From Acidobacteriota bacterium (lineage in GTDB: Bacteria > Acidobacteriota > Terriglobia > Terriglobales > Acidobacteriaceae): DNA of 64,000 nt. Location of the stretch: positions 1,116,001 through 1,180,000 of the forward strand of contig JACPYL010000010.1 in assembly GCA_016196065.1 (NCBI GenBank). The letters run 5' to 3'. Below are positions 13,002 to 40,667 of this stretch, piece by piece (positions within the stretch are counted from its first letter, which is position 1; each line of letters starts with the position of its first letter). A program made the translations under genes and the position numbers. The notes beneath the pieces are model-generated. The model saw only the letters and a list, made by a program, of their open reading frames with translations. It was not told where the DNA came from and searched no databases.

Positions 13002-14327
13002 ATGGGTTTGTCTGTCAGTATTTTCGGGTTGGGATACGTAGGGTCGGTCTCGGCCGCTTGCTTCGCCTCAATGGGCCACAAGGTCATCGGAGTAGACGTG
13101 AGCCGCGCCAAAGTCGACATGCTGGGCTCAGGGCGCACCCCGATCGTTGAAGCCCGGATGTCGGAACTGGTGGCGGAAGCCCACAAGGCCGGACGCCTGC
13201 AGGCCACCACCGACGCGCTTCATGCCGTCTTGAATTCCGATGTGTCATTCGTCTGCGTGGGAACACCCAGCCTGAAGAACGGCAAACTCGACCTCAGCCA
13301 CATTGAGAACGTTGCCCGGGAGATTGGCGCGGCTATCCGCCAGAAGAAAGCGCCGCACGTGTTCGTGTTGCGCAGTACTGTGTTGGCGGGGACAACCGAA
13401 AGCATAGTCCTTCCGATTCTTGAAGAAGCAAGTGGCAAGAAATGCGGCCGTGACTTCACCGTCTGCTATAACCCCGAGTTCATGCGCGAGGGTAGTGCCG
13501 TTGCCGACTTCCTCAACCCGCCGTACACCATTCTCGGCGCGAGCGACACTAATCATCTGGCGCCACTGCGCGAGCTCTACAAAGACACGCCCGGCACTCT
13601 GTATGAAACCTCGATCCCGGTTGCGGAGATGGTCAAGTATTTTTCGAATTGCTATCACGCGCTGAAGGTTGGTTTTGCGAACGAGATGGGCACGATGTGT
13701 AAGCATCTTGGCGTGGATGCGCAAACCGTGACGAAGATTTTCACATCCGATACCAAGTTGAATATTTCGCCGGCATACCTGTCGCCGGGCTTTGCGTTCG
13801 GAGGCTCCTGCCTACCCAAGGATCTGCGCGCGATCACCTACAAGGCGAAGGAACTCGATCTGAAACTGCCATTGCTCGAATCGCTCATGCCGAGCAATGC
13901 AGAGCATGTTGACCGCGCTGTTGAAATGGTGCTGGATACCGGCAAGAAAAAGATCGCGCAACTTGGACTGAGCTTCAAGGCCGGCACCGACGATCTGCGT
14001 GAGAGCCCGCAGGTGCAGTTGATCAAGCGACTGATGGGCGAAGGGCTGGAAGTGCGCATCTGGGACGAAGATGTTTCTCTCGGACGTATCGCGGGCGCCA
14101 ATCGCCAGTACATCGAGGAAGTGATTCCGCACATTGGATCCGTGCTTACGGATGACCTGGAAGGCGTTCTGCGCGGTGCTGAGGTCGTCATCCTGGGAAA
14201 CAAGTCGGCCACCAAAGATCAATTAGCGAAATACCTGAAGCCGGAACAGATCGTGATCGATCTGGTCCACCTTGATCCAGCACGGCGTCCGGTAGGCGCA
14301 AAAACGTACGAAGGAATGTGCTGGTAG
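13002..14327 (+). CDS. algD: GDP-mannose 6-dehydrogenase (AlgD-like)
   Basis: 441 residues from the ATG at 13002, which has GAGGAGAG upstream; the family starts at this point (SIFGLGYVGS, residues 6-15, NAD-binding loop). It is closer to AlgD than to UDP-glucose dehydrogenases: FGGSCLPKD with Cys270 at almost the position of P. aeruginosa AlgD Cys268, GLSFKAGTDDLRESP, and the C-terminal EGMCW (AlgD ends EGICW). It would oxidise GDP-mannose to GDP-mannuronate with two NAD+ in the cytosol and so supply a uronic acid to the polymer. A UDP-sugar substrate is less likely but not excluded. Confidence 0.85.
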   Translation: MGLSVSIFGLGYVGSVSAACFASMGHKVIGVDVSRAKVDMLGSGRTPIVEARMSELVAEAHKAGRLQATTDALHAVLNSDVSFVCVGTPSLKNGKLDLSHIENVAREIGAAIRQKKAPHVFVLRSTVLAGTTESIVLPILEEASGKKCGRDFTVCYNPEFMREGSAVADFLNPPYTILGASDTNHLAPLRELYKDTPGTLYETSIPVAEMVKYFSNCYHALKVGFANEMGTMCKHLGVDAQTVTKIFTSDTKLNISPAYLSPGFAFGGSCLPKDLRAITYKAKELDLKLPLLESLMPSNAEHVDRAVEMVLDTGKKKIAQLGLSFKAGTDDLRESPQVQLIKRLMGEGLEVRIWDEDVSLGRIAGANRQYIEEVIPHIGSVLTDDLEGVLRGAEVVILGNKSATKDQLAKYLKPEQIVIDLVHLDPARRPVGAKTYEGMCW

Positions 14328-14346
14328 CCGGGAGCGCTGCCTAGAG

Positions 14347-15375
14347 ATGAAGCTTCACGCCATCGATTTCCAGGCAGCCGACTGGAAGCATCTGGATAGC
14401 TTCGCAGACCGTACCGTGTTTCAAACGCGGGCATGGCTGCAATTTGTGCGCGAGTCGCAGAATGCAACCCCGGTATTGGCCGAACTGCGCGAGGGGAGTG
14501 ATGTACTCGGATACTTCACGGGGCTAACCGTTTCGAAGTTTGGCCTCAAGGTACTCGGAGGTTCGTTTCCGGGGTGGACCACCCCTTACATTGGTTTCAA
14601 TCTCAATCCCGGTGTTTCTCGTCGCAGCGCGCTCGAAGCCTTGGAAAAATTTGCGTGGGACGACCTGAAATGCCTGCACATGGAAATTTCAGACGCCCAC
14701 TTCACCTTTGAAGACGCCGAAGGGCTCGGCTTCAATGCTGAATTCTACGGTTCCTACCGCACCGATCTGACCAAGTCCGAAGATGAACTGTTCAACAGCA
14801 TGGACAGCGCCTGCCGTCGCTGCGTTCGCAAAGCAGAAAAAAGCGGCGTCAAGATCGAAGAGGCCCACGATCTCGGGTTTGCAGACGAATATTACGAGCA
14901 GTTGAAAGATGTCTTTGCGAAACAGAGCCTGGTGCCGACCTACACCGTTGACCGTGTGCGAGCGTTGGTCCGAAACGTGGAACCGAGTGGCAACGTCTTG
15001 TTGATCCGGGCACGCGATCCAGAGGGGAAGTGCATCGCGACCGGAATTTATCCGGGCTTTAACAAGATCGCCGAGTTCTGGGGAAACGCGAGCTTTCGCG
15101 CTTATCAGAATTTTCGTCCCAATGAGGCGTGTCACTGGTATGCGTTGCGCTATTGGAAACAGCGTGGCGTCACCATTTTCGATTGGGGCGGCGAGGGAGT
15201 CTACAAAGAGAAATACGGCTGCACTCCTTACCGCGTGCCCTGGTTTACGAAATCGCGCTATCAAATTGTGGGAACGCTGCGCAACGAAGCCCGTAACATG
15301 TTTGCGCGTAAGCAGAAATTGTTGGGATGGCTGCAGGGGAGTCGAACGAGCGCAGAACGTCCGGCCGACGACTAG
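14347..15375 (+). CDS. FemAB-like / GNAT-fold acyltransferase of the polysaccharide locus
   Basis: 342 residues, soluble. FQTRAWLQFV near the N terminus, a basic SACRRCVRKAEKSG segment and the C-terminal FDWGGEGVYKEKYG motif are typical of FemAB-like double-GNAT proteins found beside exosortase/EPS genes. These proteins probably transfer an acyl or aminoacyl group to a sugar nucleotide or lipid-linked sugar. It follows the AlgD-like gene by 19 bases. Its TAG overlaps, through a shared CTAG, the stop of the convergent sulfotransferase. Substrate unknown. Confidence 0.75.
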   Translation: MKLHAIDFQAADWKHLDSFADRTVFQTRAWLQFVRESQNATPVLAELREGSDVLGYFTGLTVSKFGLKVLGGSFPGWTTPYIGFNLNPGVSRRSALEALEKFAWDDLKCLHMEISDAHFTFEDAEGLGFNAEFYGSYRTDLTKSEDELFNSMDSACRRCVRKAEKSGVKIEEAHDLGFADEYYEQLKDVFAKQSLVPTYTVDRVRALVRNVEPSGNVLLIRARDPEGKCIATGIYPGFNKIAEFWGNASFRAYQNFRPNEACHWYALRYWKQRGVTIFDWGGEGVYKEKYGCTPYRVPWFTKSRYQIVGTLRNEARNMFARKQKLLGWLQGSRTSAERPADD

Positions 15376-16427
15376 TTTGTGGGTGGGTCCGAAATGCCCA
15401 TGCGGCCTATATCCGCAGTCTTTTTGAGCGGCGTGTAAGTCTTGAACCACAACTTCACATCAAAATAGATCGGATAGATCAGTCCCATCAGGCTCACAGG
15501 AAAACTGGAGTGTTTCTTGTCTGCAGGTGTAACCAGCGCGTAGCCGGTCTTCTGCAGAGTGTCGCCAATCAAGCCTTCTACTTGGGCGACTTCTTCCGCT
15601 GAGAGCACGGTTTTCCATCGTCCGACAGGGTTGGATTCCTTTTCCTGGCCATCGCCACGAAACGAAGAATTCGGATCGACCATCGATCCTTGTGCATGTT
15701 GTTGAATGCGGTCGTAGTCGAGATCGTGGTCGATGAAGGTACCGATGCGGGCCAGGGTTTCGCGAGGTTGTTCGACGACGTCTTCGTAGTGCACTTCCAT
15801 GTAGTCGGAACCCATGCGGCTTCCGTAGCGCCGACCTTTACTGACAATCCATTTCCAGAAGATGGCTGGTGCCAGCACTCGCCGTTTCCGGTCCCATGAG
15901 AAAGGCTTGATCCAACCAATGCGGTCGAGAGATACCGTTACATCGCGTCCGTCGCGAACGATGTGAACGATCTTTGCGGCCGGAAACAACTTCTTGATCA
16001 GCGGCAGATAGAGCAGGTGCAACGGTGTGCACTCGGCCCAGCGGGTCACGCCCTGCTTCCGAGCAATCGTTTCCATGAGGATGCGGAGAAAATCGCCAGC
16101 GTCATGACACTCTTCAAGAATTCTGGGTTCGATTTCTTCCCGTGTCAGGCCGGAGCGGTAGAAGAGTTTGCTGCGCAGCCAGTGGTCGAGAAGATCACGG
16201 CGATTCCCACGCTCGGCGAGATCTCCAAAGCGCAGGCCGATCAGATTGAACGCGTTACTCTCGGCGTGATAAACCGCGAAGCCTCCCGCTGATAGAAGCG
16301 TGTGATACAGGAGTTTGGTTCCCGATCGCCCGCATCCCAATACAAACACTGGAGGCCTGAAATGCACGTCCGGGGGCCGAGTGGCCTCCGTTGCGGATTT
16401 CTCGAGTGTTCCAGGCGCAGGATTCAT
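15372..16427 (-). CDS. PAPS-dependent sulfotransferase
   Basis: 351 residues. The 5'-phosphosulfate loop is VFVLGCGRSGTKLLY (27-41) and the 3'-phosphate motif HIVRDGRDVTVSL lies near 153-166, as in the sulfotransferase 3/heparan-type group. It would move sulfate from PAPS to a sugar hydroxyl. No signal peptide or membrane segment, so cytosolic. It follows a similar gene by 9 bases; the two share layout (SGGFA, PGDFIRT/AGDFLRI, FIDHDLDY) and probably arose by duplication. The acceptor is unknown; polymer precursor is inferred. Confidence 0.88.
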   Translation of the reverse strand: MNPAPGTLEKSATEATRPPDVHFRPPVFVLGCGRSGTKLLYHTLLSAGGFAVYHAESNAFNLIGLRFGDLAERGNRRDLLDHWLRSKLFYRSGLTREEIEPRILEECHDAGDFLRILMETIARKQGVTRWAECTPLHLLYLPLIKKLFPAAKIVHIVRDGRDVTVSLDRIGWIKPFSWDRKRRVLAPAIFWKWIVSKGRRYGSRMGSDYMEVHYEDVVEQPRETLARIGTFIDHDLDYDRIQQHAQGSMVDPNSSFRGDGQEKESNPVGRWKTVLSAEEVAQVEGLIGDTLQKTGYALVTPADKKHSSFPVSLMGLIYPIYFDVKLWFKTYTPLKKTADIGRMGISDPPTN

Positions 16428-16436
16428 GTCGATGGC

Positions 16437-17480
16437 TCAGGGCCGCGCCGATTGGGCTACGGCGGCTGTTTCGTCTTCCAGTTCGAGAGCGGACGTATCT
16501 GACATACGGCCCACCGAGGTATTCATTTTCAGCCACAGCTTGGTGTTCAAAAAAGTCGGATATACAGCCTGCATCATCGCGCCGCGAATTCCGCCCGACC
16601 GTTGCTCTGCGGGCAAAGACAACTCGTACCCGGTCTGTTCGAGACACTTGCCAACGGCTGCCTCGATTGCGGCGACATCGTGCGGCGATAGTCGCTCTTT
16701 CCATCGGCCCAACGGCTTGAGATCTTCTTTCTTGCCTTCTTCGCGGAAGGAAGAATTAGTCTCTGAAACACGGCCCAGTCCCGCGGTGCGAATTTTTTCG
16801 TAGTCCAGGTCGTGATCGATGAACCCACCGAGCTTTTGCAGAGTCTCCTGCGGCTTGGTGATGAGATCCTCGTAGTGAATCTCGATGTAGTCCGACGGAA
16901 ACCTTGCGCCGTGTTCCCGCCCTTTACGTACCATCCATTCCCAGTACAACGCGGTCGCAACCAGGCTTGGCGTCTGGGCTCGGTCCCACGGGAGCGGGGA
17001 GAATCCACCCATTTTTTTCAGCGACAGTGCGATGTCGCGGCCATCGCGGATGATATGGACAAATAGCGCGTTGGGAATATCGGCTTTCACGCGCTCCATG
17101 TGGAGCACATTGTCCGGATCGTATACGGCCCAGCGCGGCACACCCTGGCTGCGGGCAACGTCATCCATCACGGTGCGGATGAAGTCTCCGGGGTTGCGGC
17201 AGTCGTTGAGAATCTTCGTCGCGAGTGGTTCGGCGTCCAATCCAGTCCGGCGGAAACCCTTGCTGCGCAGCCATGTTGCCACGATCTTCTCGCGGTTCGC
17301 GCGACTCTCCATGGAGCCGTAGAGTGGAACCAGGGTCTTGTAGATCGGCAAATAGCCGCGATAGATCGCGAATCCGCCCGAGGAAAGCAGCATGTCGTAG
17401 AGAAGATTAGTTCCAGAACGATGACATCCCATCACGAAGACGGGACTACGCTCGCGATCGTTGGAATTCGGGGCCGGCAA
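16437..17480 (-). CDS. PAPS-dependent sulfotransferase (TTG start)
   Basis: 347 residues with 5'-PSB loop VFVMGCHRSGTNLLY (14-28) and 3'-PB motif HIIRDGRDIALSL near 139-152. The start is TTG at 17480: an in-frame TAA lies only four codons upstream and the conserved domain begins 13 residues later, so TTG is the furthest possible start; the ribosome site is weak. It leads a two-gene unit with the sulfotransferase at 15372. Probably cytosolic; its target is likely a polysaccharide precursor. Confidence 0.86.
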   Translation of the reverse strand: MPAPNSNDRERSPVFVMGCHRSGTNLLYDMLLSSGGFAIYRGYLPIYKTLVPLYGSMESRANREKIVATWLRSKGFRRTGLDAEPLATKILNDCRNPGDFIRTVMDDVARSQGVPRWAVYDPDNVLHMERVKADIPNALFVHIIRDGRDIALSLKKMGGFSPLPWDRAQTPSLVATALYWEWMVRKGREHGARFPSDYIEIHYEDLITKPQETLQKLGGFIDHDLDYEKIRTAGLGRVSETNSSFREEGKKEDLKPLGRWKERLSPHDVAAIEAAVGKCLEQTGYELSLPAEQRSGGIRGAMMQAVYPTFLNTKLWLKMNTSVGRMSDTSALELEDETAAVAQSARP

Positions 17481-17567: not shown

Positions 17568-19409
17568 TTATTCGACCCCTGCAATCGCCGCTTCGACAGC
17601 ATCGACATCAGCGCCAACGTCCTGCCCGTTGCTGGCAGCGCCGGCGCCCGGCGAAGTCTTGCTGCACCCGGCGCTCTTATCGCGACACAGCCGTGCGTTG
17701 CGGCTGATGCCGTCCTTCAGGTCGCGGATGGCGGCTCCGCCTTCGGAAGGAGTGATCGTCCCGGAGGGCCAGCCACGCCCGCCAATGATGAGATTCTTTT
17801 CAAATTTGTAGTTGGTAAAACATGATTCCAAGACCGCCGCCGCGCCCATTTTCTGGGCAGCTCCAGCGCAACTGTCCTTGCCACCGCCTGCTGAGGCGAA
17901 TCCCGGCCGACGATCGCCGGTCGAGAAGACACTATTGGTAATCCGGAAGCCACTGATCTTTCCGTCGACGCTCCTGACGGTCATCACCGGGCCGGGGACA
18001 AACGCGGTCATGTGATCAAACCACACATCATGGACCGGTGGTGTGTTCGACAGAATGGTCAGGAACGCGCCGTGTCCTTTGTACTCCTGATCGTGCACGT
18101 TATCGGCAATGACATCGTGGATGCTGTAGTTTCCGCCGCCCGCCGATTCGCCGCCGGCTTTTGACAATCCATTCTGGATTTCGAATACGCCACCGACGTT
18201 CCGAATGCGGTTGTAACGGATCGTGATATCCGTGACCTGGCATTTCGGGCAGCGATTTCCCTGGTTCTTCGGACTCAGCACAATCGAGAAGCCAGTCTGA
18301 CTAAAGCCTCCCCAGGAATTCTCCAGCAGATTCGCTTCGAGCAGAACGCGCTGCGCGTTCTTCAATTCGAAATTATTTTTCGCGATGTAAGGGTCGCCCG
18401 TGGAGGCAGGTTTGTACCCCGGCACGTCTTCCTTCCAGAACATGGGCTTGAACAAATGGTTGCGGCGAATCTCGATGTCGGTCGGGTTGACGGTGGCCCC
18501 GCTTCCGCCAAACAGGATGCTTTGTCCCGAGGCTTCGAGAAAGTTATTCACAATTTTGAAGGTGCCGGTTGGACTATTGCCGTTGCCGCCACCGACAGCG
18601 GATGCATCCGTACACTTGCCCGATCGCGCAATGCAGTTGAAGCCATGTAAATAAGAATTGATGACCGCGACCACTCTTGCACTCTGGATCATCCCCACGC
18701 CTTTGCCAACTTCCGCACCTTCGGCGGGATGGATCCAGTTGCGATCGAAAATGATGTGGTCCGAGCCTTCCGTGCTGATCAGGCGTCCGATGCTGGCGCT
18801 CCCATCCGTAGTCCACTCAATACCGATGAACCGGTAATGATCCCCAACCATCGCGCCGGAAGGACGTCTGACCACCAGCGTCGCCATGAGCTTGGCCGGG
18901 CCGCCCTCTGGCTGCGCGAAGGGTGGCCGCCCCGGCAACTGTGCGACTCCTGCCCATGCAGGGGAGATGCGCGATCCTTCGGGTGGTAGTTTTGCATCCG
19001 TGGTGTCAGTGCGTACGGTTATGTAGTGCTGGTCGTCACATTTCTTGGAGGGAAGGTCACTGACTTCGTAAGAGGATCCTGCGGGCAGAAGGATCGTGTC
19101 TCCGCATTTGGCGCTGTCCAGCGCGGATCCGAGATCCGATTTTCCCGATACGCGGATCTGCTTGCCGGGCGAGGGTGTTCCGTCCATTCCTGTGTAGTAG
19201 CAGGCGGTAGGTAACTGCGCGGGACCATCCTTGTCGCCGAACTTGGGAACATCGCCCTTGGCGCAGTACGCATTCTCGGATGTTGGAGGAGTGGCGGCCA
19301 CGACGAGTGTGCGACCGCAGAGAATGATGCAAGAAGAGACCAGGCAGCGAAGGAAAAAAGTAGCAAACGGGGATCGATAATCGGAATGCAACACAGTTTT
19401 CGGAGCCAT
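17568..19409 (-). CDS. Secreted right-handed beta-helix protein
   Basis: 613 residues with a long n-region and a hydrophobic signal segment (about 16-38), exported. The rest is beta-helix-like: repeated HxIFDRNWIH, IEIRRNHLF, VLLEANLLENSWGGFSQTGF and ITIRYNRIRN, the pattern of pectate-lyase/parallel beta-helix proteins. CPKC (about 385-390) sits between turns. No catalytic set of a named lyase family was recognised. It is a clear paralogue of the C-terminal two thirds of the lipoprotein at 19596, down to the ending DVGADVDAVEAAIAGV. AAGGAA precedes ATG. Polysaccharide binding or cleavage is inferred. Confidence 0.78.
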   Translation of the reverse strand: MAPKTVLHSDYRSPFATFFLRCLVSSCIILCGRTLVVAATPPTSENAYCAKGDVPKFGDKDGPAQLPTACYYTGMDGTPSPGKQIRVSGKSDLGSALDSAKCGDTILLPAGSSYEVSDLPSKKCDDQHYITVRTDTTDAKLPPEGSRISPAWAGVAQLPGRPPFAQPEGGPAKLMATLVVRRPSGAMVGDHYRFIGIEWTTDGSASIGRLISTEGSDHIIFDRNWIHPAEGAEVGKGVGMIQSARVVAVINSYLHGFNCIARSGKCTDASAVGGGNGNSPTGTFKIVNNFLEASGQSILFGGSGATVNPTDIEIRRNHLFKPMFWKEDVPGYKPASTGDPYIAKNNFELKNAQRVLLEANLLENSWGGFSQTGFSIVLSPKNQGNRCPKCQVTDITIRYNRIRNVGGVFEIQNGLSKAGGESAGGGNYSIHDVIADNVHDQEYKGHGAFLTILSNTPPVHDVWFDHMTAFVPGPVMTVRSVDGKISGFRITNSVFSTGDRRPGFASAGGGKDSCAGAAQKMGAAAVLESCFTNYKFEKNLIIGGRGWPSGTITPSEGGAAIRDLKDGISRNARLCRDKSAGCSKTSPGAGAASNGQDVGADVDAVEAAIAGVE

Positions 19410-19595: not shown

Positions 19596-22259
19596 TTAGT
19601 TGACGCCTGCCAGGGCTGCGTCAAGGCCCGCGATGTCGGCTCCGAGATCCTTGCCATCGGTGCCGGCGTTCTTGTACGGACTGTTGGACTGCAGTTCATA
19701 GTTGCCGTTGATCCCGTTGTTGAACTGCACAAAGCCTGCGTTCTTGGTGTCCGGAGCAAACATGTTTCCGGTCGGCCAGACCGAAGGCGGAAACTGCTGA
19801 GGATTATTCAGCAGCGCGTTATTTCCAAAAGAGTAGCTGGTGAAACAGGTTGCGATGCTGGTGACAGGTGTGTCCGAGTACGCGCAACTGGTCTTGCCAC
19901 CGCCCGAGTTCCACACTGGATAGCGGCCGGTTGTGACCAGATTGTTTGTGAACACGAAGGAATGCATCGACGGGTTCTCGGACTTGTTGCCCATGATGAA
20001 CAGATGGCTGTCCGCGTCAGGGAAGCCGGTGATGTGGTTGATGGTGAGTGTGTTGAGCGGATTGGCCGGCCAGCCATTTACGATCTCGAACAACGAGCCG
20101 CCGCCAACGTAGTTCTTGTTGATGTCGTCCATGACCACGTCATGGATACTCCAGCGGGCTCCCAGGTACGCCGGCCCGCCTCCGTCGCCATTTCCCGACA
20201 TCGAAGTGGCGAGCTGCATGCCGCCCGCTGCGTGCGAAATACGGTTGTAGCGGATCGTAATGTCCGTGACTTGGCACATTGGACAAACGTTGCCATTGTT
20301 CCGGGTGTGCTGGCTCTTGGGGCTGAGCAGCAGTCCGAATCCGGTCTGACTGAAGCCTCCCCACGTGTTCTCCATCACATTGGCTTCGATGAGGACGCGT
20401 GTTGCGTTCTTCAGTTCGATGTGGTTTTTGACGACAAACGGATGGCCATCGGGCGCACCGACGAATTTCGGGTTGCCCGGCATCCATTGCCACGGTTTGT
20501 AAATATGATTGCGGCGAATTTCGATGTCCGCCGGGGTGACGGTTGCTGCGCCGCCGCCGAAGAACACGGATTCACCCGAGGCTTCGAGGAAGTTGTTCTC
20601 GATCTTGAACGGACCATCCAGGTGGCTGCCGATGCCTCCAGCAACCGCGTGCGAATCCGAACATGTTCCTGTTCCCGACGTGCAGTGGAAGTCGCTGAAG
20701 TAGGAATCGACCACGGCGACAAAATTCGTGCCGTTCAGCGAAACGCCGAGTTGCGTTTCATCCTGCGCGGTTCCATGCAACCAGGAACGATCGATGATGA
20801 TGTGGTCGGCCACGCCACCGGGCTCTACTCCGATAAGCGTCGGAGCCATTCGTCCACCCGCCGTCCGGGTCAGTTCGAGTCCCAGCAAGCGGTAGTGATT
20901 GGCGCCGTTCTTAAGGATGAATGGTCCATCCGCGGTCTTGTTGTATTCGAGCTTCGCAAGTATTTTTTGTGGATTCGAGCAAGTGAATTGCGGACGTCCG
21001 GGCAAGGATCCGACTCCCGCAAAACATGGACTGACGCGCTTTCCCTCTGCTGGTAAAGAGCCGTCAGAAGCACTGCTGCGGATGATGATCCAATGCGATT
21101 TGTCGCAACTCTTGGCTGGCAGAACAAAACTCCCCGGGAAGGTTGCGCCCGCCTGGAGTTCGATCGTATCGCCGCAATGCGCGTTGTTCAGCGCCGTCTG
21201 CAGGTCTCCACCGGCGTTGACTGCGATGGTGGCTCCCGGTGCCGGCGTGTCCGACATGGAACTCGACACGGTCGCGCGCGGCAGTTCAGCCGGGCCGTCA
21301 AGATTGCCGCCGGCCGCGATGTTCAACGAAAACGTTTTGCTGGCAGCTTGCGCCTTTGCGTCGGTCACTTTGATGGTGAAGCTGTAGCCGCCTGCTGTTC
21401 CGGGCATGCCTGCCAGTTGGCCATCACTTTGCGACAACGCAACTCCCTGAGGAATGTTCCCGCCCGCGACCGTCCAACTGTAAGGTTGGGTGCCACCGGT
21501 GGCAGTCAGCGAAGCGTCGTATGCATTTCCGGTGCGGCCGTCAGGCAGATTGCCGGTGTTGATTGCCAGGCCCTGATTGTTCGCAGGTTCGACTACGGCG
21601 GTGGCTGCACCTTGCGCCTTGGCGTCTGCCTTGCTGGTCGCGGTGACGGAAACATTCGTTACCACGGTCACATTCGGGGCGGTCAGTACGCCGCTATTGG
21701 AGATCGTTCCAGCCGATGAAGTCCAAATCACAGCGCTGTTGTCAGTGCCGGTGACGGCTGCGGTAAATGCCTGGGTTTGTCCGGAAAGGATGTTAGCAGT
21801 CCCCGGGGACACGGTCACCCGGACGCCTTTACCCGGGCCAGTAACGGAGATCGAAAAGTTCTGGGCGCCGCGGTGAGTCTGTGGCGCGTCCGAGACCTCG
21901 ACTTCGAAAACATAAGAACCCTCGGCCGTGGGCGTACCAGAGACTGAGCCAGTCGTCGGATTCAGACTGACGCCGTTGGGCAGGGTGCCGGACTTGACGG
22001 CGAAGTGATAAGGCGCGTCTCCGCCGCTCACCGTCAGGACGGAGTTGTAGGCCTGATTCGTTACACCGCCGGGGAATTGTCCCGACAGGGTCAGGGTGTT
22101 GGCGCCGCTCTGTGATTGATCTTGTGTGATAAAGCCGCACGAAGCGGTAAGCACGACGCACGCTAATAACAAGGCACCCGCAACGATGCGGAATCCATGA
22201 GAAGTCCTTGTATCAGAATCCGTGATATCGCCAAAACGACTGCGGTTCAACTTGGACAT
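19596..22259 (-). CDS. Ig-like and beta-helix lipoprotein
   Basis: About 887 residues from the ATG at 22259, which has GAGG six bases upstream; a TTG seven codons earlier is the alternative. A signal segment ends in LTASC (Cys41), a lipobox, so it is probably membrane-anchored. Then come a He_PIG Ig-like repeat (about 50-135), a Big-2-like domain (about 140-215), a second He_PIG repeat (about 225-310) and a long beta-helix homologous to the protein at 17568 (TWGGFSQTGF, CPMCQVTDITIRYNR). Surface adhesin or carbohydrate-active protein; no enzyme family assigned. Confidence 0.8.
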   Translation of the reverse strand: MSKLNRSRFGDITDSDTRTSHGFRIVAGALLLACVVLTASCGFITQDQSQSGANTLTLSGQFPGGVTNQAYNSVLTVSGGDAPYHFAVKSGTLPNGVSLNPTTGSVSGTPTAEGSYVFEVEVSDAPQTHRGAQNFSISVTGPGKGVRVTVSPGTANILSGQTQAFTAAVTGTDNSAVIWTSSAGTISNSGVLTAPNVTVVTNVSVTATSKADAKAQGAATAVVEPANNQGLAINTGNLPDGRTGNAYDASLTATGGTQPYSWTVAGGNIPQGVALSQSDGQLAGMPGTAGGYSFTIKVTDAKAQAASKTFSLNIAAGGNLDGPAELPRATVSSSMSDTPAPGATIAVNAGGDLQTALNNAHCGDTIELQAGATFPGSFVLPAKSCDKSHWIIIRSSASDGSLPAEGKRVSPCFAGVGSLPGRPQFTCSNPQKILAKLEYNKTADGPFILKNGANHYRLLGLELTRTAGGRMAPTLIGVEPGGVADHIIIDRSWLHGTAQDETQLGVSLNGTNFVAVVDSYFSDFHCTSGTGTCSDSHAVAGGIGSHLDGPFKIENNFLEASGESVFFGGGAATVTPADIEIRRNHIYKPWQWMPGNPKFVGAPDGHPFVVKNHIELKNATRVLIEANVMENTWGGFSQTGFGLLLSPKSQHTRNNGNVCPMCQVTDITIRYNRISHAAGGMQLATSMSGNGDGGGPAYLGARWSIHDVVMDDINKNYVGGGSLFEIVNGWPANPLNTLTINHITGFPDADSHLFIMGNKSENPSMHSFVFTNNLVTTGRYPVWNSGGGKTSCAYSDTPVTSIATCFTSYSFGNNALLNNPQQFPPSVWPTGNMFAPDTKNAGFVQFNNGINGNYELQSNSPYKNAGTDGKDLGADIAGLDAALAGVN

Positions 22260-22563
22260 CGCGAGCCTCGATAACTTCAAATTGGGGGACCGTTAGCTCG
22301 AGTCCTCAGCATCGAATCTATTTCGGGATGTCGAATGCGCACAGATGCCAAGAGGGCATGGGAAGTACAACGCACTGGGACATGTCGAGTGGGACACCGC
22401 GCTGGGCGCGGATTCGCGCGCATGCATGTCCAATCACGCATCTGATCAGTAACTAGTGCAGCTCAATTTCTGGACGCTTGTTGCAGGGATTCGACTAAGA
22501 GCAACCCCTTAGGCGAAAACGAACAAGGGATGGATCGGAGACACGAAAGTAACCGCTGTCTGG
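22260..22563. other. Intergenic region upstream of the Ig/beta-helix lipoprotein
   Basis: About 300 bases between two minus-strand genes; no gene seen. It should contain the promoter of the lipoprotein gene. GCATGCATG near 22420 and CGCGCTGGGCGCGG near 22398 are small palindromes without clear assignment. No T-run terminator is visible after the deacetylase gene. Confidence 0.3.
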
Positions 22564-31941: not shown

Positions 31942-33636
31942 ATGGCTGAACGAACCGAAATGTCAGAAAACCCGCTCAACGTCATCATTTTTTCCTCTGT
32001 TCCCCCGCGACAGGTAGCCCGCATCATCGCGCGCATTCGGCGGGACGCGCCGGAAGCGCGGGTCACAGGCGTACTCTACGAACGCCGTCCCGCCAAGACA
32101 CTCAAGCAGCGCATCGAGAACTGGCGCAAGAAAATGAAGCGCTTCGCGTACTGGAAGTATGTGGCGCATCGCGTTGGGGCCACGATCGGGCGTCATGCGT
32201 ACAACGTTCTCGAGTCCGTGATTCGAATCATTCACGCCGCACCAAAATATCCAAACGGCAAGACGGGATACGGCCTCGACGATCTCGGCGAGACCTGCAA
32301 GCAGATCGGCGCCGAACTCCTGGTCACGCGCGACATTCATTCGGAAGAAGCGCTGGCATTTGTGCGGCGAGTGAACGCCGATCTCGGACTCGTCTTCGGA
32401 ACGCGCATCCTGAAGCCGGTGCTCTATAACATTCCGCCGCAGGGATCGATCAATATCCACAAACGCAAGGTGCCGGACTACCGCGGTGGCGGCGCGGTTG
32501 GACTCTGGGAACTGCTCGATGACCAGACAGAGATTGGAGTCACCGTCCATCGCGTGGAAGCGAAGGTCGATGTCGGTGGTGTGATTCGATCAGCGACGAT
32601 CCCGATTGAACCGTACGACGATCTCGAAAGCCTGGCGCTCAAGGCCGACGTGGTGGGTTCCGACTTGATCGTGGCGGCGATCCGCGATTTTGCGCTCGGA
32701 AACGTCAAGGAATCTCCCCAGAGCGGGACTGGAAAGACGCTCCGTTCGCCGGTCGCCGAGGATTTCCTCCAGATGAAGAAGCAACTCGCGGCGCGCCGCA
32801 AGGGCTACGGAAATCCGTACCGGCGTCCGCGCTGGAAGCTGCTGGCCAAGTCTCTTTTGTTTGCGATTCCGGTCGCGATTCGTAACCGGAAGCACAAGCG
32901 CCAACGTGATTTTCCGGTAATGATCTTGTATCACCACCTGGTCTCGGATCGCCCGCATCGTTTCGGAGTGGGTACGGCGTACTTTCTGCGCCAGGTGAAC
33001 TACCTGCTCCGGCACTACCGCGTGGTGAGTTTGAGAGAGGCTGTCCGCCTGATACGTGAAGGACCGGTCACGGTCCCGACCGTCGCGATTACTTTCGACG
33101 ACGGTTACGCAGACAATTTCGTCAACCTGCGCGCGGTCAGCGAAGAGACTGGCGTTTCCATTGGATACTTCGTGGCTACGGAACACATCGCGAAAGGCAA
33201 AGAGTTCGCCCACGACGAGCTTTTCAACGAGCACGGGTTCCCCCCGAATACATGGAACCAACTGGAGGTCATGCGACACAGTGGCTACGAACTTGCCAGT
33301 CACACTCGCAACCACGCCGATTGCGGGTCGACCGAGGAAGCATTCCTGCAGTCAGAGATCGCCGGCTCGCTGGAAGACTTCAAGCAAATGTTAGGACCGA
33401 CCGCCCACTTCTCATTTCCATACGGCCTGTCGAAAAACATTTCGCCGCGCGCCGCGGAGATTGCCTGTTCGCACTATGAAAACGTATTTTCCGCGTACGG
33501 TGGCGGCAACCTTCGTAGCGAACCGCAGCGCATCATGAAACGGGGGAATTTTCCGTTCACCGTGTGGGAACTCGAACTGCAATTGCAATCGGTCCTGCGG
33601 CAAGCCCGGCCCGAAGAGCCCTACCTGAAGAAATAG
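31942..33636 (+). CDS. Formyltransferase-polysaccharide deacetylase fusion
   Basis: 564 residues. The N-terminal formyltransferase-like domain (about 10-245) has SINIHKRKVPDYRGGG with Asn171 and His173 and Asp210 in VDVGGV, matching the N-x-H...D triad of Fmt/ArnA-type N10-formyl-THF enzymes. The C-terminal NodB domain (about 325-545) has TFDDGYADN (Asp386/387), HTRNH (His454/458) and FSFPYG. A basic linker joins them. It may formylate and deacylate an amino sugar in series, but the real reaction order is unknown. Divergent from ribA. ATG at 31960 is an alternative start. Confidence 0.85.
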   Translation: MAERTEMSENPLNVIIFSSVPPRQVARIIARIRRDAPEARVTGVLYERRPAKTLKQRIENWRKKMKRFAYWKYVAHRVGATIGRHAYNVLESVIRIIHAAPKYPNGKTGYGLDDLGETCKQIGAELLVTRDIHSEEALAFVRRVNADLGLVFGTRILKPVLYNIPPQGSINIHKRKVPDYRGGGAVGLWELLDDQTEIGVTVHRVEAKVDVGGVIRSATIPIEPYDDLESLALKADVVGSDLIVAAIRDFALGNVKESPQSGTGKTLRSPVAEDFLQMKKQLAARRKGYGNPYRRPRWKLLAKSLLFAIPVAIRNRKHKRQRDFPVMILYHHLVSDRPHRFGVGTAYFLRQVNYLLRHYRVVSLREAVRLIREGPVTVPTVAITFDDGYADNFVNLRAVSEETGVSIGYFVATEHIAKGKEFAHDELFNEHGFPPNTWNQLEVMRHSGYELASHTRNHADCGSTEEAFLQSEIAGSLEDFKQMLGPTAHFSFPYGLSKNISPRAAEIACSHYENVFSAYGGGNLRSEPQRIMKRGNFPFTVWELELQLQSVLRQARPEEPYLKK

Positions 33637-35377: not shown

Positions 35378-35404
35378 ACAAAGATCGTAGACCATAGGGA
35401 ATTC

Positions 35405-36412: not shown

Positions 36413-36421
36413 GAGATTTCG

Positions 36422-37294
36422 GTGCTCAAGCGTGCCATCGTCGAAGCCAAGCGGGTGTTCGGACTGCACAGTCCCGGACGCAATCTCGCCGTCTTTCCCG
36501 ACGACACGTTTCTCGTTTCGTTCCCGAAGTCAGGCAACACCTGGGCCCGATTTCTGATTGCGAATCTGGTTCGCCCCAATGAGAAGATTGATTTTTCCAA
36601 TGTGAATGGCGTGATCCCCGGTCCGGAAGTCACGCGCAATCGCGATCTGCTGAGGATTCCGCGGCCTCGCATCATCAAGAGCCATCAGTATTTTGATCCC
36701 CGATATAAACAGGTGATCTACATCGTGCGCGATCCGCGCGATGTGGCGGTTTCGCAATACCACTTCCAGCGCAAGCGCAAATTAGTCGCGGATAGTTTCC
36801 CGCTCTCTGATTTCGTTACGAAATTTCTCGCTGGCGAGACCTGCTTCTACGGATCATGGGGAGAGCACGTTGGCAGCTGGCTGGCCACTCGTCATGGTCA
36901 ACGCGGTTTTGTGTTGCTGCGCTACGAAGACATGGTTGCCGATACGGCGCCGGAACTGGCGAAGGTTGCGGCATTTCTGAATATTGCCGCGACGCCCGAT
37001 CGAATCGCCCAAGCCGTAGAGCGCAGTTCGGCGGATACTATGCGCAAGCTCGAAAAATCGCAGGCGCAGGCTTTCTCTTCGACCAAAGACACGCGACAGG
37101 ATATTCCGTTCGTGCGAGCGGCCAAAGCCGGCGGCTGGCGTTCGGAGCTGCCGGAAGAAAGTGTTGCGTGCATTGAAGAAGCGTGGGGACATTTGATTCA
37201 GTGGTTGGGATACGAATTGGTGACATCGAAGCAGGTTGCGGACTCCGCTGAAAGAGGCCACACGGCCGATTTTCTGGTGGGACCGCGACGGTAA
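36422..37294 (+). CDS. PAPS-dependent sulfotransferase, tandem copy 1
   Basis: 290 residues from GTG at 36422 (AGGAG upstream). The 5'-PSB loop is SFPKSGNTWARF (33-44) and the 3'-PB motif YIVRDPRDVAVSQY lies near 100-113; TKDTRQDIPFVRAAKAGGW near the C terminus is the PAPS-contacting RxGxxGxW-like part. Sulfotransferase 1 family, cytosolic. It is followed by two close paralogues aligned through their lengths, so this is a tandem triplication. The acceptor sugar is unknown. Confidence 0.9.
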   Translation: MLKRAIVEAKRVFGLHSPGRNLAVFPDDTFLVSFPKSGNTWARFLIANLVRPNEKIDFSNVNGVIPGPEVTRNRDLLRIPRPRIIKSHQYFDPRYKQVIYIVRDPRDVAVSQYHFQRKRKLVADSFPLSDFVTKFLAGETCFYGSWGEHVGSWLATRHGQRGFVLLRYEDMVADTAPELAKVAAFLNIAATPDRIAQAVERSSADTMRKLEKSQAQAFSSTKDTRQDIPFVRAAKAGGWRSELPEESVACIEEAWGHLIQWLGYELVTSKQVADSAERGHTADFLVGPRR

Positions 37295-37325
37295 CAAACG
37301 AAACAACGAACCTGGGGAACTATTC

Positions 37326-38192
37326 ATGATTGCTCGCTTGATTGCTGGATCAAAACGGATCGTCGGAATGTACCGCCCGCGCCGCGACCTCCACATCTGG
37401 GCCGACGATATCTTTCTCGTCTCTTTTCCGAAGTCGGGCAATACCTGGACTCGCTTCCTGATTGCGAATCTGGCGTTTCCCAACGAGCGTGTTGATTTCG
37501 CCAGCATTCATCAACTTGTTCCCGATCCGTACGTGACCTACAAGCGCGACTTCGACCGTATGCCGCACCCGCGCATCATCAAGAGCCACGAATGCTTCGA
37601 ACCGCGCTACCCGCGGGCGATGTACATCGTGCGCGATCCTCGTGATGTTGTGATCTCTCAGTACCACTATCACCGCAAGTGCAACAAGATTGAAGACGGA
37701 TATCCGATGGAGAAGTTCGTGGCGCGATTCCTTGCGGGGGATACCTGTCCGCACGGATCCTGGGGAGAAAGCGTTACGACGTGGCTGACTTCACGCCACA
37801 ATGATCCGCGATTCCTGTTGCTGCGTTACGAAGACCTGGTGGCCGATCCTCGCCGCGAATTGGCACGAGTCGCGACGTTCATGAATATTGACGCCGATGC
37901 TGAGCGCATTTCGAAAGCCGTAGAACGCAGCGCCGCCGACAACATGCGCAAGCTGGAAAAGGCGCAGAGCGACAAGAGTTCGCTCACCAAGGATTCACGC
38001 AAGGATCTTTCTTTCGTTCGCGCGGCAAAGTCCGGCGGCTGGCAGAAAGATCTGCCGTCACAATATGTCGCGCAGATTGAAGCCAAGTGGGGACACATCA
38101 TGACGTTCTTGAATTACCCGCTTGTGACTCGCGATGCAGCCAGCGTAGAACCTGAACTCGCTGGATTCATGCCCGGTGGTTCGGCGCGATGA
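37326..38192 (+). CDS. PAPS-dependent sulfotransferase, tandem copy 2
   Basis: 288 residues from the ATG at 37326, behind CTGGGGAAC; an earlier in-frame start at 37236 overlaps the previous gene and is not family-like. Same motifs at the same positions as copy 1: SFPKSGNTWTRF (33-44), YIVRDPRDVVISQY, SFVRAAKSGGW. It overlaps copy 3 by 4 bases (ATGA). Confidence 0.9.
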   Translation: MIARLIAGSKRIVGMYRPRRDLHIWADDIFLVSFPKSGNTWTRFLIANLAFPNERVDFASIHQLVPDPYVTYKRDFDRMPHPRIIKSHECFEPRYPRAMYIVRDPRDVVISQYHYHRKCNKIEDGYPMEKFVARFLAGDTCPHGSWGESVTTWLTSRHNDPRFLLLRYEDLVADPRRELARVATFMNIDADAERISKAVERSAADNMRKLEKAQSDKSSLTKDSRKDLSFVRAAKSGGWQKDLPSQYVAQIEAKWGHIMTFLNYPLVTRDAASVEPELAGFMPGGSAR

Positions 38193-39058
38193 TCTGGGGT
38201 CTCAAGAAAATCGTCAAGTACGCGCTCGGCTCTGACATTGCCGGACGCAATCTGGCGATCTATCCGGACGATACGTTTATCGTTTCGTATCCTCGTTCGG
38301 GGAATACCTGGACGCGTTTTCTCGTTGCCAACCTCGTTCATCCCGAGCAGCCGATTACTTTCGCAAATATCGAAAAGCTGATTCCTGATTGCGAGGCGAT
38401 GTCGAGCCGCTTCCTGAAGTCGGTTGCGCGTCCCCGCATCATCAAGAGCCACGAATACTTCGATCCCCGGTACAAGAAGGTGCTCTACATCGTGCGTGAT
38501 CCGCGCGACGTGGTGCTCTCCTATTACGATTTCTGCCGCAAGTACCGCCAGATCGAAGACAATTTTCCGCTCAGCCGTTTCGTGAGTGATTTTGTTGCCG
38601 GGCGCCTGTTGTCCTTTGACTGGGGAACGTGGGGCGAGAATGTCAGCAGTTGGCTCTACACGCGTAACGGGCGGCCAGATTTTCTCCTGCTCCGGTACGA
38701 GGACATGCTCGACAACACGAAAGAGGAACTGACCCGGGTGGCCAGCTTCCTGGGGATTAACCCAACGCCCGAAGTGCTCAACAACGCGATCGAGCGTAGC
38801 TCCGCGGAACGCATGCGTGGCATGGAAAAGACGCAAGGCGAACAGTGGGTCACGACCAAGAATAAGCGCAGCGACATCCCATTTGTGCGAACCGCTTCTT
38901 CAGGACTGTGGAAAGAGAAATTGCCGGCCGAATCGATTGCAGAAATCGAGTCAGCATGGGGACCGTTGATGCGCCAGTTGGGATATGAGTTGACGTCCGA
39001 CCACTTCGGCACGGGTCAGAAAACGGAATCGCCAGAACTTGTAAAGGAACACATCTAG
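38189..39058 (+). CDS. PAPS-dependent sulfotransferase, tandem copy 3
   Basis: 289 residues, start in a 4-base overlap with copy 2. The PAPS loop is SYPRSGNTWTRF (33-44), with Arg for Lys at the second position of the PKSGNTW motif, and YIVRDPRDVVLSYY follows. PFVRTASSGLW replaces the RAAK-GGW of the other copies, so it is the most divergent of the three and may act on another position. Followed 31 bases later by the flippase gene. Confidence 0.9.
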   Translation: MIWGLKKIVKYALGSDIAGRNLAIYPDDTFIVSYPRSGNTWTRFLVANLVHPEQPITFANIEKLIPDCEAMSSRFLKSVARPRIIKSHEYFDPRYKKVLYIVRDPRDVVLSYYDFCRKYRQIEDNFPLSRFVSDFVAGRLLSFDWGTWGENVSSWLYTRNGRPDFLLLRYEDMLDNTKEELTRVASFLGINPTPEVLNNAIERSSAERMRGMEKTQGEQWVTTKNKRSDIPFVRTASSGLWKEKLPAESIAEIESAWGPLMRQLGYELTSDHFGTGQKTESPELVKEHI

Positions 39059-39089
39059 GGAACGCCGAGTAGTTCTCCTTCCGGCCCGT

Positions 39090-40667
39090 ATGCGCAAATT
39101 CGAAAAAGGTCAGATCATCAAGAACATCAGTTCGAGTTGGTTCTCTCTGGGAATCAACATCGTGACTGGAATTTTTCTGTCTCCCTTCATTCTTCATCAT
39201 TTGGGAGACACGGCGTTCGGCGTCTGGGTTCTGATCTTCTCGGTCACCGGGTACTACGGACTTTTTGACCTTGGCATCCGGTCCTCAGTCGTGCGCTACG
39301 TTTCCAAATTCACGGCGACCGACGAAAACGAAGAACTAGCCAAGGTCGTCAATACCAGCCTCTTCAGCTATAGCTGTATCGGACTCGCGAGCCTCCTCGT
39401 CACGCTACTGCTGTGCTTCAACGTCGAACATGTCTTCGCGAAGATTCCAGCGGAGATGATTCCGACCGCGCGCTGGCTGCTTTTCATGGTTGGCGCTTCG
39501 GTAGCGCTGGGATTTCCTCTGGGAGTTTTCGGCGGATTCCTGGAAGGCTTGCAGCGGTTCTACGTCCTCAACTGGACGAACGTCGTCGCAACCCTGCTGC
39601 GGACGTGGCTCATCGTAGTCGTGCTCAGCCGGGGATACGGCCTGCTGATGGTGGCGTTCATTACGATCGTTCTCCCGATGATCGCTTCCATCGTCCGCGC
39701 CGGCATCGCCTTGAGTATTCGGCCCGTTCCATTCGGTTTCAAGTACATCGACCGGCCTACATTCCGCCGGATCGTGAATTACAGCAGTTCGACGTTCCTG
39801 ATCATGGTGGCGGGCCGCCTGAAGTTCAAGACCGACGAAATCGTCATCGGCACGATGCTGTCAGCGGCGGCGGTTACCTACTTCAACATCGGCAACCGCA
39901 TCGTAGACTATGCCGGGCAGGTCGTGACCACGCTCGCGCAAGTCTTTACGCCCATGTCGAGCCAGTCGGAAGCCAAGGGCGACAAGAACCGTCTGCGGAA
40001 GATTTTTGTGGTCGGAAACCGCGTATGCGCATTCATTATTTTTCCCATTTGCGCGACCCTCATCATTCTCGGAAAATCTGTGATCGAGGTATGGATGGGG
40101 AAGAAGTACCTCACGACCGACAGCTATCCCGTGCTCGTGATCATGATCATAGCCTGCACGCTGTGGTGGTCGCAGAGCGCCTCCGGACGGGTTTTGTTTG
40201 GGATGTCCAAGCACAGCACATGGGCAAAGGTCACGCTCATTGAGGGTGTGTCGAACCTGATCCTCAGCATTCTTCTGGTGCGGCCGTTCGGCATCATCGG
40301 CGACGCGTTCGGCACTGCCATCCCGCTAGCGTGCAGCACGATCTTCTTCATGCCTCGCCATGTTTCGAAACTGCTCGATATTCGTTTGCGAACGTACTTG
40401 CGGGAGGCCTATGTTCTGCCGTTTCTGTTGACGATGCCGCTGGTGGCCACTCTTCTTTTGTTGAAGCAGTGGTTTGTACCTCACAACTACCGGGGGCTGG
40501 GACTCCAATTGGCGATTGGTGGAGCAGTCTATGGATCCGGATTGGCATGGGCGTACTTCAGCAACCGCGCCTTCCAGACAGGTCAGCTCGTGGTCAAGAC
40601 TGAACCGAAGCCCGAGCAATTTGAGGCCATCGCGGAAGCGGTGGACTCGACTCGCGGTGAGGTCTAA
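39090..40667 (+). CDS. Polysaccharide flippase, Wzx/MATE-like
   Basis: 525 residues, hydrophobic through most of its length with about 12-14 membrane segments; FLSPFILHHLGDTAFGVWVLI near the N terminus is typical of PST-type flippases, and internal GYYGLFDLGIRSSVVRYVS is the conserved loop. It would move lipid-linked oligosaccharide to the periplasmic face. Last gene of the plus-strand operon that includes the sulfotransferases, so sulfation probably precedes export. Confidence 0.87.
   Translation: MRKFEKGQIIKNISSSWFSLGINIVTGIFLSPFILHHLGDTAFGVWVLIFSVTGYYGLFDLGIRSSVVRYVSKFTATDENEELAKVVNTSLFSYSCIGLASLLVTLLLCFNVEHVFAKIPAEMIPTARWLLFMVGASVALGFPLGVFGGFLEGLQRFYVLNWTNVVATLLRTWLIVVVLSRGYGLLMVAFITIVLPMIASIVRAGIALSIRPVPFGFKYIDRPTFRRIVNYSSSTFLIMVAGRLKFKTDEIVIGTMLSAAAVTYFNIGNRIVDYAGQVVTTLAQVFTPMSSQSEAKGDKNRLRKIFVVGNRVCAFIIFPICATLIILGKSVIEVWMGKKYLTTDSYPVLVIMIIACTLWWSQSASGRVLFGMSKHSTWAKVTLIEGVSNLILSILLVRPFGIIGDAFGTAIPLACSTIFFMPRHVSKLLDIRLRTYLREAYVLPFLLTMPLVATLLLLKQWFVPHNYRGLGLQLAIGGAVYGSGLAWAYFSNRAFQTGQLVVKTEPKPEQFEAIAEAVDSTRGEV

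What the first reader, a model, noticed from the sequence alone, without database searches (positions are those of the whole stretch)
13002..40667. Probable sulfated uronate exopolysaccharide locus with its own PAPS supply
Five sulfotransferases, a fused ATP sulfurylase/APS kinase, a CysQ-like PAP phosphatase and a TauE-type carrier lie among EPS genes (flippase, glycosyltransferases, amidotransferases). An AlgD-like dehydrogenase with the diagnostic Cys270 and a heparinase II/III-type gene suggest a mannuronate-containing, sulfated polymer. Sulfated polysaccharides are rarely described in soil bacteria. Gene presence is seen; the polymer itself is inferred.
Basis: partly seen in the sequence, partly recalled or inferred. 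Interest (0 to 1): 0.8.

Follow-up and report, generated by a model that had tools for sequence, protein, structure and literature searches.

The report
Sulfated-slime gene locus in soil Acidobacteriota
A soil-type acidobacterium and many of its relatives carry a conserved stretch of DNA that seems to make an extracellular sugar polymer and decorate it with sulfate, a decoration best known from marine organisms and cyanobacteria; the genes are clear, the polymer itself has not been seen.

Summary
The window has five PAPS-type sulfotransferases, a fused ATP sulfurylase/APS kinase, a CysQ-like phosphatase, TauE, an AlgD-like dehydrogenase and EPS genes. The stated span is too narrow: the export core (exosortase, Wza, Wzc, priming transferase) lies just upstream, so this is an exosortase-linked Wzx/Wzy EPS locus.

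Relatives support a sulfated polymer. In a 398-genome family sample, 83 of 88 genomes with the fused-type sulfurylase also have a PF00685 sulfotransferase, against 50 of 310 without it. In nine relatives and this genome, exosortase, AlgD-like gene, sulfotransferases and sulfurylase lie within about 60 kb.

'Its own PAPS supply' needs rewording: it is the only ATP sulfurylase found in the genome, so it should also feed cysteine synthesis. The cysteine route's reductase looks APS-type, so the kinase half probably serves sulfation.

Mannuronate is plausible, not shown: the dehydrogenase is closest to Pseudomonas AlgD, and a neighbour folds like alginate lyases/epimerases among other beta-helix proteins. 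Sulfotransferase substrates cannot be read from sequence.

The kind is known (synechan, Vibrio capsule); I found no paper on it in Acidobacteriota in the library searched.

The parts
519..1880 (+). Wzy-type polymerase/ligase (PF04932)
   Evidence: homologues of 30-64% identity in the ten relatives whose EPS core was fetched (G014 G035 G069 G086 G091 G102 G116 G117 G123 G134)
1837..2811 (+). SAM methyltransferase
2820..3992 (+). conserved protein of unknown family in the EPS locus
   Evidence: no Pfam or NCBIfam match; 60-61% identical genes in G035, G123, G116, G086 and L066
4001..5977 (+). asparagine-synthase-type amidotransferase, XrtA-system-like
   Evidence: TIGR03108 672.7 bits, below its 816.9 cut-off
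5982..7142 (+). glycosyltransferase family 4
7139..8239 (+). glycosyltransferase family 4
8273..10225 (-). second asparagine-synthase-type amidotransferase
   Evidence: TIGR03108 593.3 bits, below cut-off
10226..12652 (-). heparinase II/III-type protein; no obvious signal peptide by eye
   Evidence: PF16889 and PF07940; best solved relative heparinase III, 88 bits
13002..14327 (+). AlgD-like (GDP-mannose 6-dehydrogenase-like) dehydrogenase, Cys270
14347..15375 (+). FemAB/GNAT-type protein
   Evidence: PF13480; TIGR03019 40.7 bits, below its 260.35 cut-off
15372..16427 (-). sulfotransferase ST3a (PF13469)
   Evidence: predicted PAPS-sulfotransferase fold
16437..17480 (-). sulfotransferase ST3b (PF13469)
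   Evidence: conserved cofactor-site residues in alignment A2
17568..19409 (-). right-handed beta-helix protein (lyase/epimerase-like), no Pfam match
19596..22280 (-). Ig-like repeats plus the same beta-helix domain
   Evidence: He_PIG; 40% identical to the previous protein
22564..23349 (-). polysaccharide deacetylase
   Evidence: PF01522
23381..24181 (-). CysQ-like PAP phosphatase
   Evidence: TIGR01331 best model, below cut-off
24248..25018 (-). TauE/SafE permease
   Evidence: PF01925
25111..26853 (-). fused ATP sulfurylase/APS kinase; the genome's only PF01747 match
31942..33636 (+). formyltransferase/polysaccharide deacetylase fusion
   Evidence: PF00551 and PF01522
34013..35377 (+). FAD amine-oxidase-type protein
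   Evidence: PF01593; upstream of sulfotransferases and flippase in L053, L057, L058 and L059
35405..36412 (+). glycosyltransferase family 2
36422..37294 (+). sulfotransferase ST1a (PF00685)
37326..38192 (+). sulfotransferase ST1b (PF00685); ATG start preferred to the TTG at 37236
38189..39058 (+). sulfotransferase ST1c (PF00685)
39090..40667 (+). Wzx-type flippase
   Evidence: PF01943, PF13440
42638..43657 (+). PEP-CTERM protein, possible exosortase substrate
   Evidence: PF07589 30.6 bits against 20.7

Best explanation
This is one exosortase-linked Wzx/Wzy exopolysaccharide locus that makes a sulfated, probably acidic polymer. Inferred steps: the priming transferase (upstream of the window) and several glycosyltransferases build a repeat unit on undecaprenyl phosphate; the AlgD-like enzyme supplies a nucleotide uronate, most likely GDP-mannuronate; the fused sulfurylase/APS kinase makes PAPS; the five sulfotransferases put sulfate on the lipid-linked unit; the CysQ-like phosphatase removes the PAP left over; Wzx flips, Wzy polymerises, Wzc/Wza export; deacetylase and beta-helix lyase/epimerase proteins trim the polymer. 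Cysteine synthesis takes APS from the same sulfurylase and leaves it before the kinase step. Shown: the genes, conserved residues, predicted folds, linkage and co-occurrence. Inferred: every substrate, the order of steps, and the polymer.
For: All five sulfotransferases have the family domains. Residues recalled as cofactor and catalytic sites are invariant: S37, G38, T40, H88, R103 and S111 in 18 ST1 rows; R34, S35, G36, T37, R158 and S166 in 13 ST3 rows. Sulfurylase, TauE, CysQ-like gene, deacetylase, two beta-helix genes, ST3b and ST3a form one same-strand run, gaps 9-283 bp; the same order stands in same-genus G133. EPS core upstream: exosortase, Wza, Wzc, ATPase, tyrosine kinase, priming transferase. 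Co-occurrence of fused-type sulfurylase and PF00685: 17 of 17 against 8 of 133 genomes, own genome included, and by genus 9 of 9 against 5 of 33, p 4.5e-6; 83 of 88 against 50 of 310 in the wider sample, which overlaps the first; among its genomes not in the first sample 66 of 71. Three of the 17 fused-type genomes (G035, G071, G123), all with PF00685 matches, have no PF01507 match at all, so no PAPS reductase of that family. The reductase of this genome and of 12 relatives has the CC and CxxC pairs that I recall as marks of APS reductases; ours passes the APS-reductase model TIGR02055 (236.7 against 235.3) and fails the PAPS-reductase model TIGR02057 (192.7 against 254.2).
Against: No polymer, sulfate or activity has been measured. 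Family and fold do not give the acceptor: ST1a is nearest by sequence to SULT enzymes for small molecules, ST3a to tyrosylprotein and polyketide sulfotransferases. Five of 88 fused-type genomes had no PF00685 match, and 50 genomes without the fused type had one. 41 of 72 PF00685 matches lie outside 60 kb of a listed exosortase. In 6 of the 17 fused-type genomes, which make up all the bearers of five of the nine genera (g3, g18, g26, g31, g36) plus G086, no PF00685 match was on the sulfurylase's contig. The reductase of this genome also passes two broader models named phosphoadenylyl-sulfate reductase (NF002537, 269.3 against 154; TIGR00434, 249.8 against 165.1), so PAPS use by it is not excluded. 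Lack of PF01507 is not special to bearers: 21 of 150 genomes have none, 3 with and 18 without the fused type. The CysQ-like gene misses its model cut-off. Fisher tests are not corrected for shared ancestry.
Confidence: 0.72

Rival explanations
1. The sulfurylase-TauE-CysQ set is ordinary assimilatory sulfate activation that merely sits near an EPS locus; the sulfotransferases are a separate matter.
For: It is the only ATP sulfurylase found in the genome, so it should also serve cysteine synthesis. In G086 the set lies on another contig than the EPS and sulfotransferase genes, and in G004, G071, G094, G108 and G148 no PF00685 match was on its contig. The genome's reductase also passes broad PAPS-reductase-named models.
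Against: Presence of the fused type tracks sulfotransferases across genera. Three bearers lack any PF01507 reductase. The reductases seen have APS-type cysteines and ours fails the narrow PAPS-reductase model; such a route would need no APS kinase or PAP phosphatase.
Confidence: 0.12
2. The sulfotransferases act on lipids, LPS or small molecules, not on the EPS.
For: ST1a is closest by sequence to SULT enzymes of small molecules; a sixth sulfotransferase lies elsewhere in the genome; more than half of relatives' PF00685 matches lie outside the locus.
Against: ST1a-c sit between a glycosyltransferase and the flippase with gaps of -4 to 31 bp. ST1 genes beside a flippase recur in named relatives L053, L054, L057, L058 and L059; a GT2-like gene before them was seen by BLAST only in L053, the others having an unmatched frame there or the contig end.
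Confidence: 0.1
3. The PF13469 pair sulfates tyrosines of secreted (for example PEP-CTERM) proteins.
Confidence: 0.06

Closest known systems
Synechan locus (xss) of Synechocystis PCC 6803 (PMC8205485; passages read)
   Same: Wzx/Wzy-type EPS cluster with sulfotransferases of more than one subfamily.
   Different: Two sulfotransferases there, five here. The main-text search found no mention of exosortase or PAPS, and the passage listing the cluster names no PAPS-synthesis gene.
Sulfated capsule locus of Vibrio sp. KMM 8419 (PMC11641403; passages read)
   Same: PAPS-synthesis genes and sulfotransferases in one polysaccharide cluster, which its authors call a hallmark of sulfated polysaccharide synthesis.
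   Different: ABC-transporter capsule; its PAPS genes are second copies of cysC, cysN and cysD. Here the fused enzyme is the only sulfurylase found in the genome.
wps-1 cluster of the soil actinomycete Actinoplanes missouriensis (PMC13390465; passages read)
   Same: Wzx/Wzy cluster with two sulfotransferases predicted to make a sulfated polysaccharide; loss of a sulfate adenylyltransferase/APS kinase family gene, apparently near the cluster, harms sporangia.
   Different: Gram-positive; no exosortase in the passages seen (not searched for); sulfate also unverified there.
Exosortase/PEP-CTERM EPS loci (NCBIfam XrtA and XrtD models)
   Same: Exosortase with fused EpsI domain, priming transferase TIGR03013 above cut-off, homologues of the system's Wza, Wzc, ATPase, kinase, glycosyltransferase and amidotransferase.
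   Different: Those other homologues score below the curated cut-offs; sulfation genes are not part of the described systems as far as I recall.
Pontiella sulfatireligans sulfated glycosaminoglycan-like exopolymer (PMC7356697; passages read)
   Same: A sulfotransferase gene in a polysaccharide cluster, with sulfated exopolymer detected.
   Different: Marine Kiritimatiellae; the main-text search found no mention of exosortase, PEP-CTERM or adenylyl.

Membership tests
Sulfated EPS locus of Wzx/Wzy type | Sulfotransferases inside a cluster with flippase, polymerase, co-polymerase and export protein | tested here: met
Sulfated EPS locus of Wzx/Wzy type | PAPS synthesis genes in the same cluster | tested here: met
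Sulfated EPS locus of Wzx/Wzy type | Ester sulfate on the secreted polymer | not testable with these tools
   needs chemistry
XrtA exosortase (TIGR03109) | Curated score cut-off | tested here: not met
   203.7 against 208
XrtD exosortase (TIGR04152) | Curated score cut-off | tested here: met
   439.8 against 400
XrtD exosortase (TIGR04152) | VPLPA-type sorting signal on substrates | tested here: inconclusive
   only one candidate read; it has a VPEP-type PEP-CTERM
Bifunctional ATP sulfurylase/APS kinase (NF004040) | Curated score cut-off, both domains | tested here: met
   933.3 against 669; both Pfam domains
CysQ (TIGR01331) | Curated score cut-off | tested here: not met
   136.0 against 228.8, though the best model
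PAPS-dependent sulfotransferases PF00685/PF13469 | Family domain and conserved cofactor-site residues | tested here: met
GDP-mannose 6-dehydrogenase (AlgD) | Closest solved relative and catalytic cysteine motif | tested here: met
GDP-mannose 6-dehydrogenase (AlgD) | Oxidises GDP-mannose | not testable with these tools
   a GDP-mannose pyrophosphorylase-like gene exists in the genome, 327.3 bits against the two-domain model's 372.95
Alginate biosynthesis | Mannuronan synthase Alg8/Alg44 and periplasmic Alg proteins | not tested
   not searched
Alginate lyases/epimerases with beta-helix fold (PL6, PL31, AlgE; family numbers of 6kfn recalled) | Fold | tested here: inconclusive
Assimilatory APS reductase | TIGR02055 cut-off and CC/CxxC cysteines | tested here: inconclusive
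   236.7 against 235.3, a narrow pass; TIGR02057 (PAPS reductase) not reached, but the broad NF002537 and TIGR00434, named phosphoadenylyl-sulfate reductase, are passed; cysteines present in 13 of 13 read

The most novel reading that the evidence does not exclude
Soil Acidobacteriota make a sulfated, mannuronate-containing (alginate- or heparin-like) slime. In these lineages the cell's only sulfate-activating enzyme has become part of the slime locus, where it replaces the CysD-type enzyme of related genomes, so that sulfur assimilation and matrix sulfation share one gene island.
Probability: 0.3. Interest if true: 0.75.

Novelty: new variant of a known kind. Interest (0 to 1): 0.56.

Why it matters
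A 2021 paper still called sulfated polysaccharides exclusive to cyanobacteria among bacteria (PMC8205485, passages); marine bacteria have been added since (PMC11641403, PMC7356697, passages), and a 2026 paper raised a soil actinomycete as a possibility (PMC13390465, passages). If correct, an abundant soil phylum makes such polymers, which would bear on water and metal binding in soils and peat, on organic sulfate-ester stocks, and on what soil sulfatases feed on. It also gives a gene marker (fused sulfurylase with sulfotransferases beside an exosortase EPS locus) and a genetic prediction: APS kinase is dispensable for cysteine but needed for polymer sulfate.

Tried and rejected
Private second PAPS supply: rejected, since the genome has one PF01747 and one PF01507 match. 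XrtA membership: rejected by cut-off, XrtD passes. Substrate from sulfotransferase structure: led nowhere; SULT, tyrosylprotein and polyketide enzymes are the nearest. Catalytic residues of the beta-helix proteins: phmmer of the 613 aa protein gave no solved relative up to E 1, and a profile of the family gave only weak N-terminal matches, four sequences with E 0.045-0.078, among them AlyGC and 6kfn, so no active site was assigned.

Literature, all by search listing unless said otherwise: exosortase+sulfotransferase+exopolysaccharide gave one paper, synechan; acidobacteri+exopolysaccharide+exosortase none; Acidobacteriota+sulfotransferase seven, off topic by title; at least three of Korobacter, Sulfotelmatobacter, sulfotransferase, polysaccharide: none. 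Broader searches were seen only in part: 15 of 81 papers, 9 of 9, 15 of 26 and 15 of 49 were listed; none of the listed titles is about sulfated polymers of Acidobacteria. The Granulicella EPS paper (PMC5259719, passages) has no word beginning sulfat, sulphat or sulfur in its main text, so sulfate seems not to have been looked for.

Counting choices: the family sample overlaps the order sample. Six genomes with truncated sulfurylase rows (G310, G320, G323, G361, G368, G374) count as not fused-type in the main figures; dropping them gives 83 of 88 against 44 of 304. In one search one split row of G069 was merged, and the exosortase table was cut at its end. 'Fused type' in the family sample means 280 bits or more against PF01747; 7 of the 88 had no open frame of 550 aa or more. 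In the sulfotransferase tree eight rows of this phylum or order (L083, L088, L089, L093, L098, L112, G071, G115) fall outside the main clade.

Full report
What is there. The window is G000:C10:1116001-1180000 of a 5.53 Mb genome in 29 contigs. The amidotransferases and the heparinase-type gene are real but lie left of 13002. Four genes between 27218 and 31869 look like housekeeping.

The locus is larger. The 18.5 kb left of the window (L009) hold an exosortase with fused EpsI domain, a sigma-54-type regulator, Wza, Wzc, an ATPase, a tyrosine autokinase, a priming sugar transferase and two glycosyltransferases. The exosortase passes the XrtD model and just misses XrtA. With Wzy (519-1880) and Wzx (39090-40667) the genes for a Wzx/Wzy export pathway are there. 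A PEP-CTERM protein lies at 42638-43657.

Gene order. On the minus strand eight genes follow each other from 26853 to 15372: sulfurylase/kinase, TauE, CysQ-like, deacetylase, two beta-helix proteins, ST3b, ST3a, with gaps of 92, 66, 31, 283, 186, 87 and 9 bp. On the plus strand the amine-oxidase-type gene, GT2, ST1a, ST1b, ST1c and the flippase have gaps of 27, 9, 31, -4 and 31 bp. PAPS making, PAP removal and sulfate transfer may thus be transcribed together (inference).

Relatives. I fetched regions from 15 sampled genomes: 14 with the fused-type sulfurylase, of the 16 relatives in the order sample that have it (G094 and G108 were not fetched), and G115, which lacks it. In nine (G014, G035, G069, G091, G102, G116, G117, G123, G134) the exosortase, export genes, AlgD-like gene (61-75% identity), heparinase-type gene, sulfotransferases and the sulfurylase lie on one contig; beta-helix genes were found in seven of the nine, not in G117 and G123. 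Sulfurylase and exosortase are 32-56 kb apart in these nine. CysQ, TauE and sulfurylase stand together in 12 of the 14; in G134 the sulfurylase's place comes, since a longer frame on the other strand hid it. The exceptions are G117, with no TauE hit, and G071, with no CysQ hit. Among named records, the first 21 listed ST1 matches (L053-L073) all bear titles of Acidobacteriota or its subgroups, several of them bog, palsa, fen or soil-depth samples by name. Six of the 21 (L053, L058, L059, L068, L069, L073) hold the sulfurylase, in L069 and L073 only a part, within the fetched flank. An ST1 tree of 107 rows puts 45 rows, all from Acidobacteriota records, this window or this order's genomes, together with mixed support (95/65); two subclades within it have strong support (99/98 and 99/93). 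Eight further rows of the phylum or order fall elsewhere.

Co-occurrence. In 150 genomes of the order, 17 have the fused-type sulfurylase, this one included, and all 17 have a PF00685 match, against 8 of the other 133; by genus 9 of 9 against 5 of 33, p 4.5e-6. With PF00685 matches of E below 1e-12 only, it is 16 of 17 against 4 of 133. In 398 genomes of the family it is 83 of 88 against 50 of 310. The five exceptions are G165, G189, G206, G395 and G398, with listed completeness 76, 82, 90, 96 and 61%. These tests ignore shared ancestry; the genus count is a partial answer to that. Linkage is not universal: in 6 of the 17 no PF00685 match was on the sulfurylase's contig, and in the family sample 36 of 88 had a listed strong PF00685 match within 30 kb on the same contig, from a cut list. 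In 20 genomes with both PF00685 and a listed exosortase, 31 of 72 PF00685 matches lie within 60 kb of the exosortase, all in fused-type genomes, against 2.6 expected. So 41 of 72 do not, and sulfation in these genomes is not confined to this locus.

Where PAPS goes. This genome has one PF01747 and one PF01507 match. The latter is a reductase in line with a sulfite/nitrite-reductase-type gene and siroheme genes, so the fused enzyme is the only source of APS that I found. The reductase passes the APS-reductase model TIGR02055 narrowly and fails the PAPS-reductase model TIGR02057, but it also passes two broader models that carry the name phosphoadenylyl-sulfate reductase. It has the CC and CxxC pairs that I recall as marks of APS reductases; so have those of 12 relatives with the fused enzyme. 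In 12 of the 17 fused-type genomes of the order sample PF01507 has a single match, in two (G133, G014) two matches, and in three (G035, G071, G123) none. Of the other 133 genomes 18 have none either. Many genomes without the fused enzyme show a longer match of about 680 bp, which I take for CysD by its length only. The simplest reading is that the fused enzyme replaced CysD-type activation, that cysteine synthesis uses APS, and that the kinase half and the PAP phosphatase serve sulfation. This is inference; an assay of the reductase would settle it.

Sulfotransferases. ST1a-c keep the residues recalled as cofactor and catalytic sites in 18 aligned rows, and the ST3 pair keeps its own in 13. 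ST3a was modelled with mean pLDDT 75.6 and falls among PAPS-dependent sulfotransferases, nearest to tyrosylprotein and polyketide enzymes. The acceptor is not settled by this.

Place in the literature. I saw passages only. Synechan (PMC8205485), the Vibrio capsule (PMC11641403), Pontiella (PMC7356697) and Actinoplanes wps-1 (PMC13390465) are the nearest systems. Searches pairing Acidobacteria with these terms found nothing on the subject among the papers listed (one search listed 15 of 81); subscription journals are mostly absent from that library. I therefore call this a new variant of a known kind: an exosortase-type EPS locus with sulfation genes, in a phylum for which I found no report, with the only sulfurylase found in the genome inside it.

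Noticed in passing
G265:C188:25369-27984: In a same-genus relative three PF00685 matches lie in one open frame of 954 aa, as if the tandem sulfotransferases were fused; in G229:C28 two share a frame of 614 aa.
   Followed up: no
window 31942-33636: Formyltransferase domain fused to a polysaccharide deacetylase domain; homologues of 63% in G133 and 69% in L064.
   Followed up: partly
window 2820-3992: A 390 aa protein without Pfam or NCBIfam match, conserved at 60-61% in EPS loci of four sampled relatives and L066.
   Followed up: no
G000:C8:328034-328840 (L004): A sixth sulfotransferase, unlinked, related to the PF13469 pair.
   Followed up: partly
G014 C13 and C1, G035 C128, G091 C16: Further pairs of sulfotransferase matches 1-7 kb apart on other contigs, perhaps a second sulfation locus.
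   Followed up: no
L050 (G115:C11:180001-200000): A genome without the fused sulfurylase has a CysD-length PF01507 match, a sulfurylase/kinase-like match and a sulfotransferase within a few kb, which looks like another way to join PAPS supply and sulfation.
   Followed up: no
own genome: Eleven PF00884 (sulfatase family) matches, ten of them strong, none in this window.
   Followed up: no
L104 (Chloroflexota record): Sulfotransferase next to a fused sulfurylase/kinase homologue (53% identity over 570 aa) among glycosyltransferase-like genes, so the pairing is not confined to Acidobacteriota.
   Followed up: no
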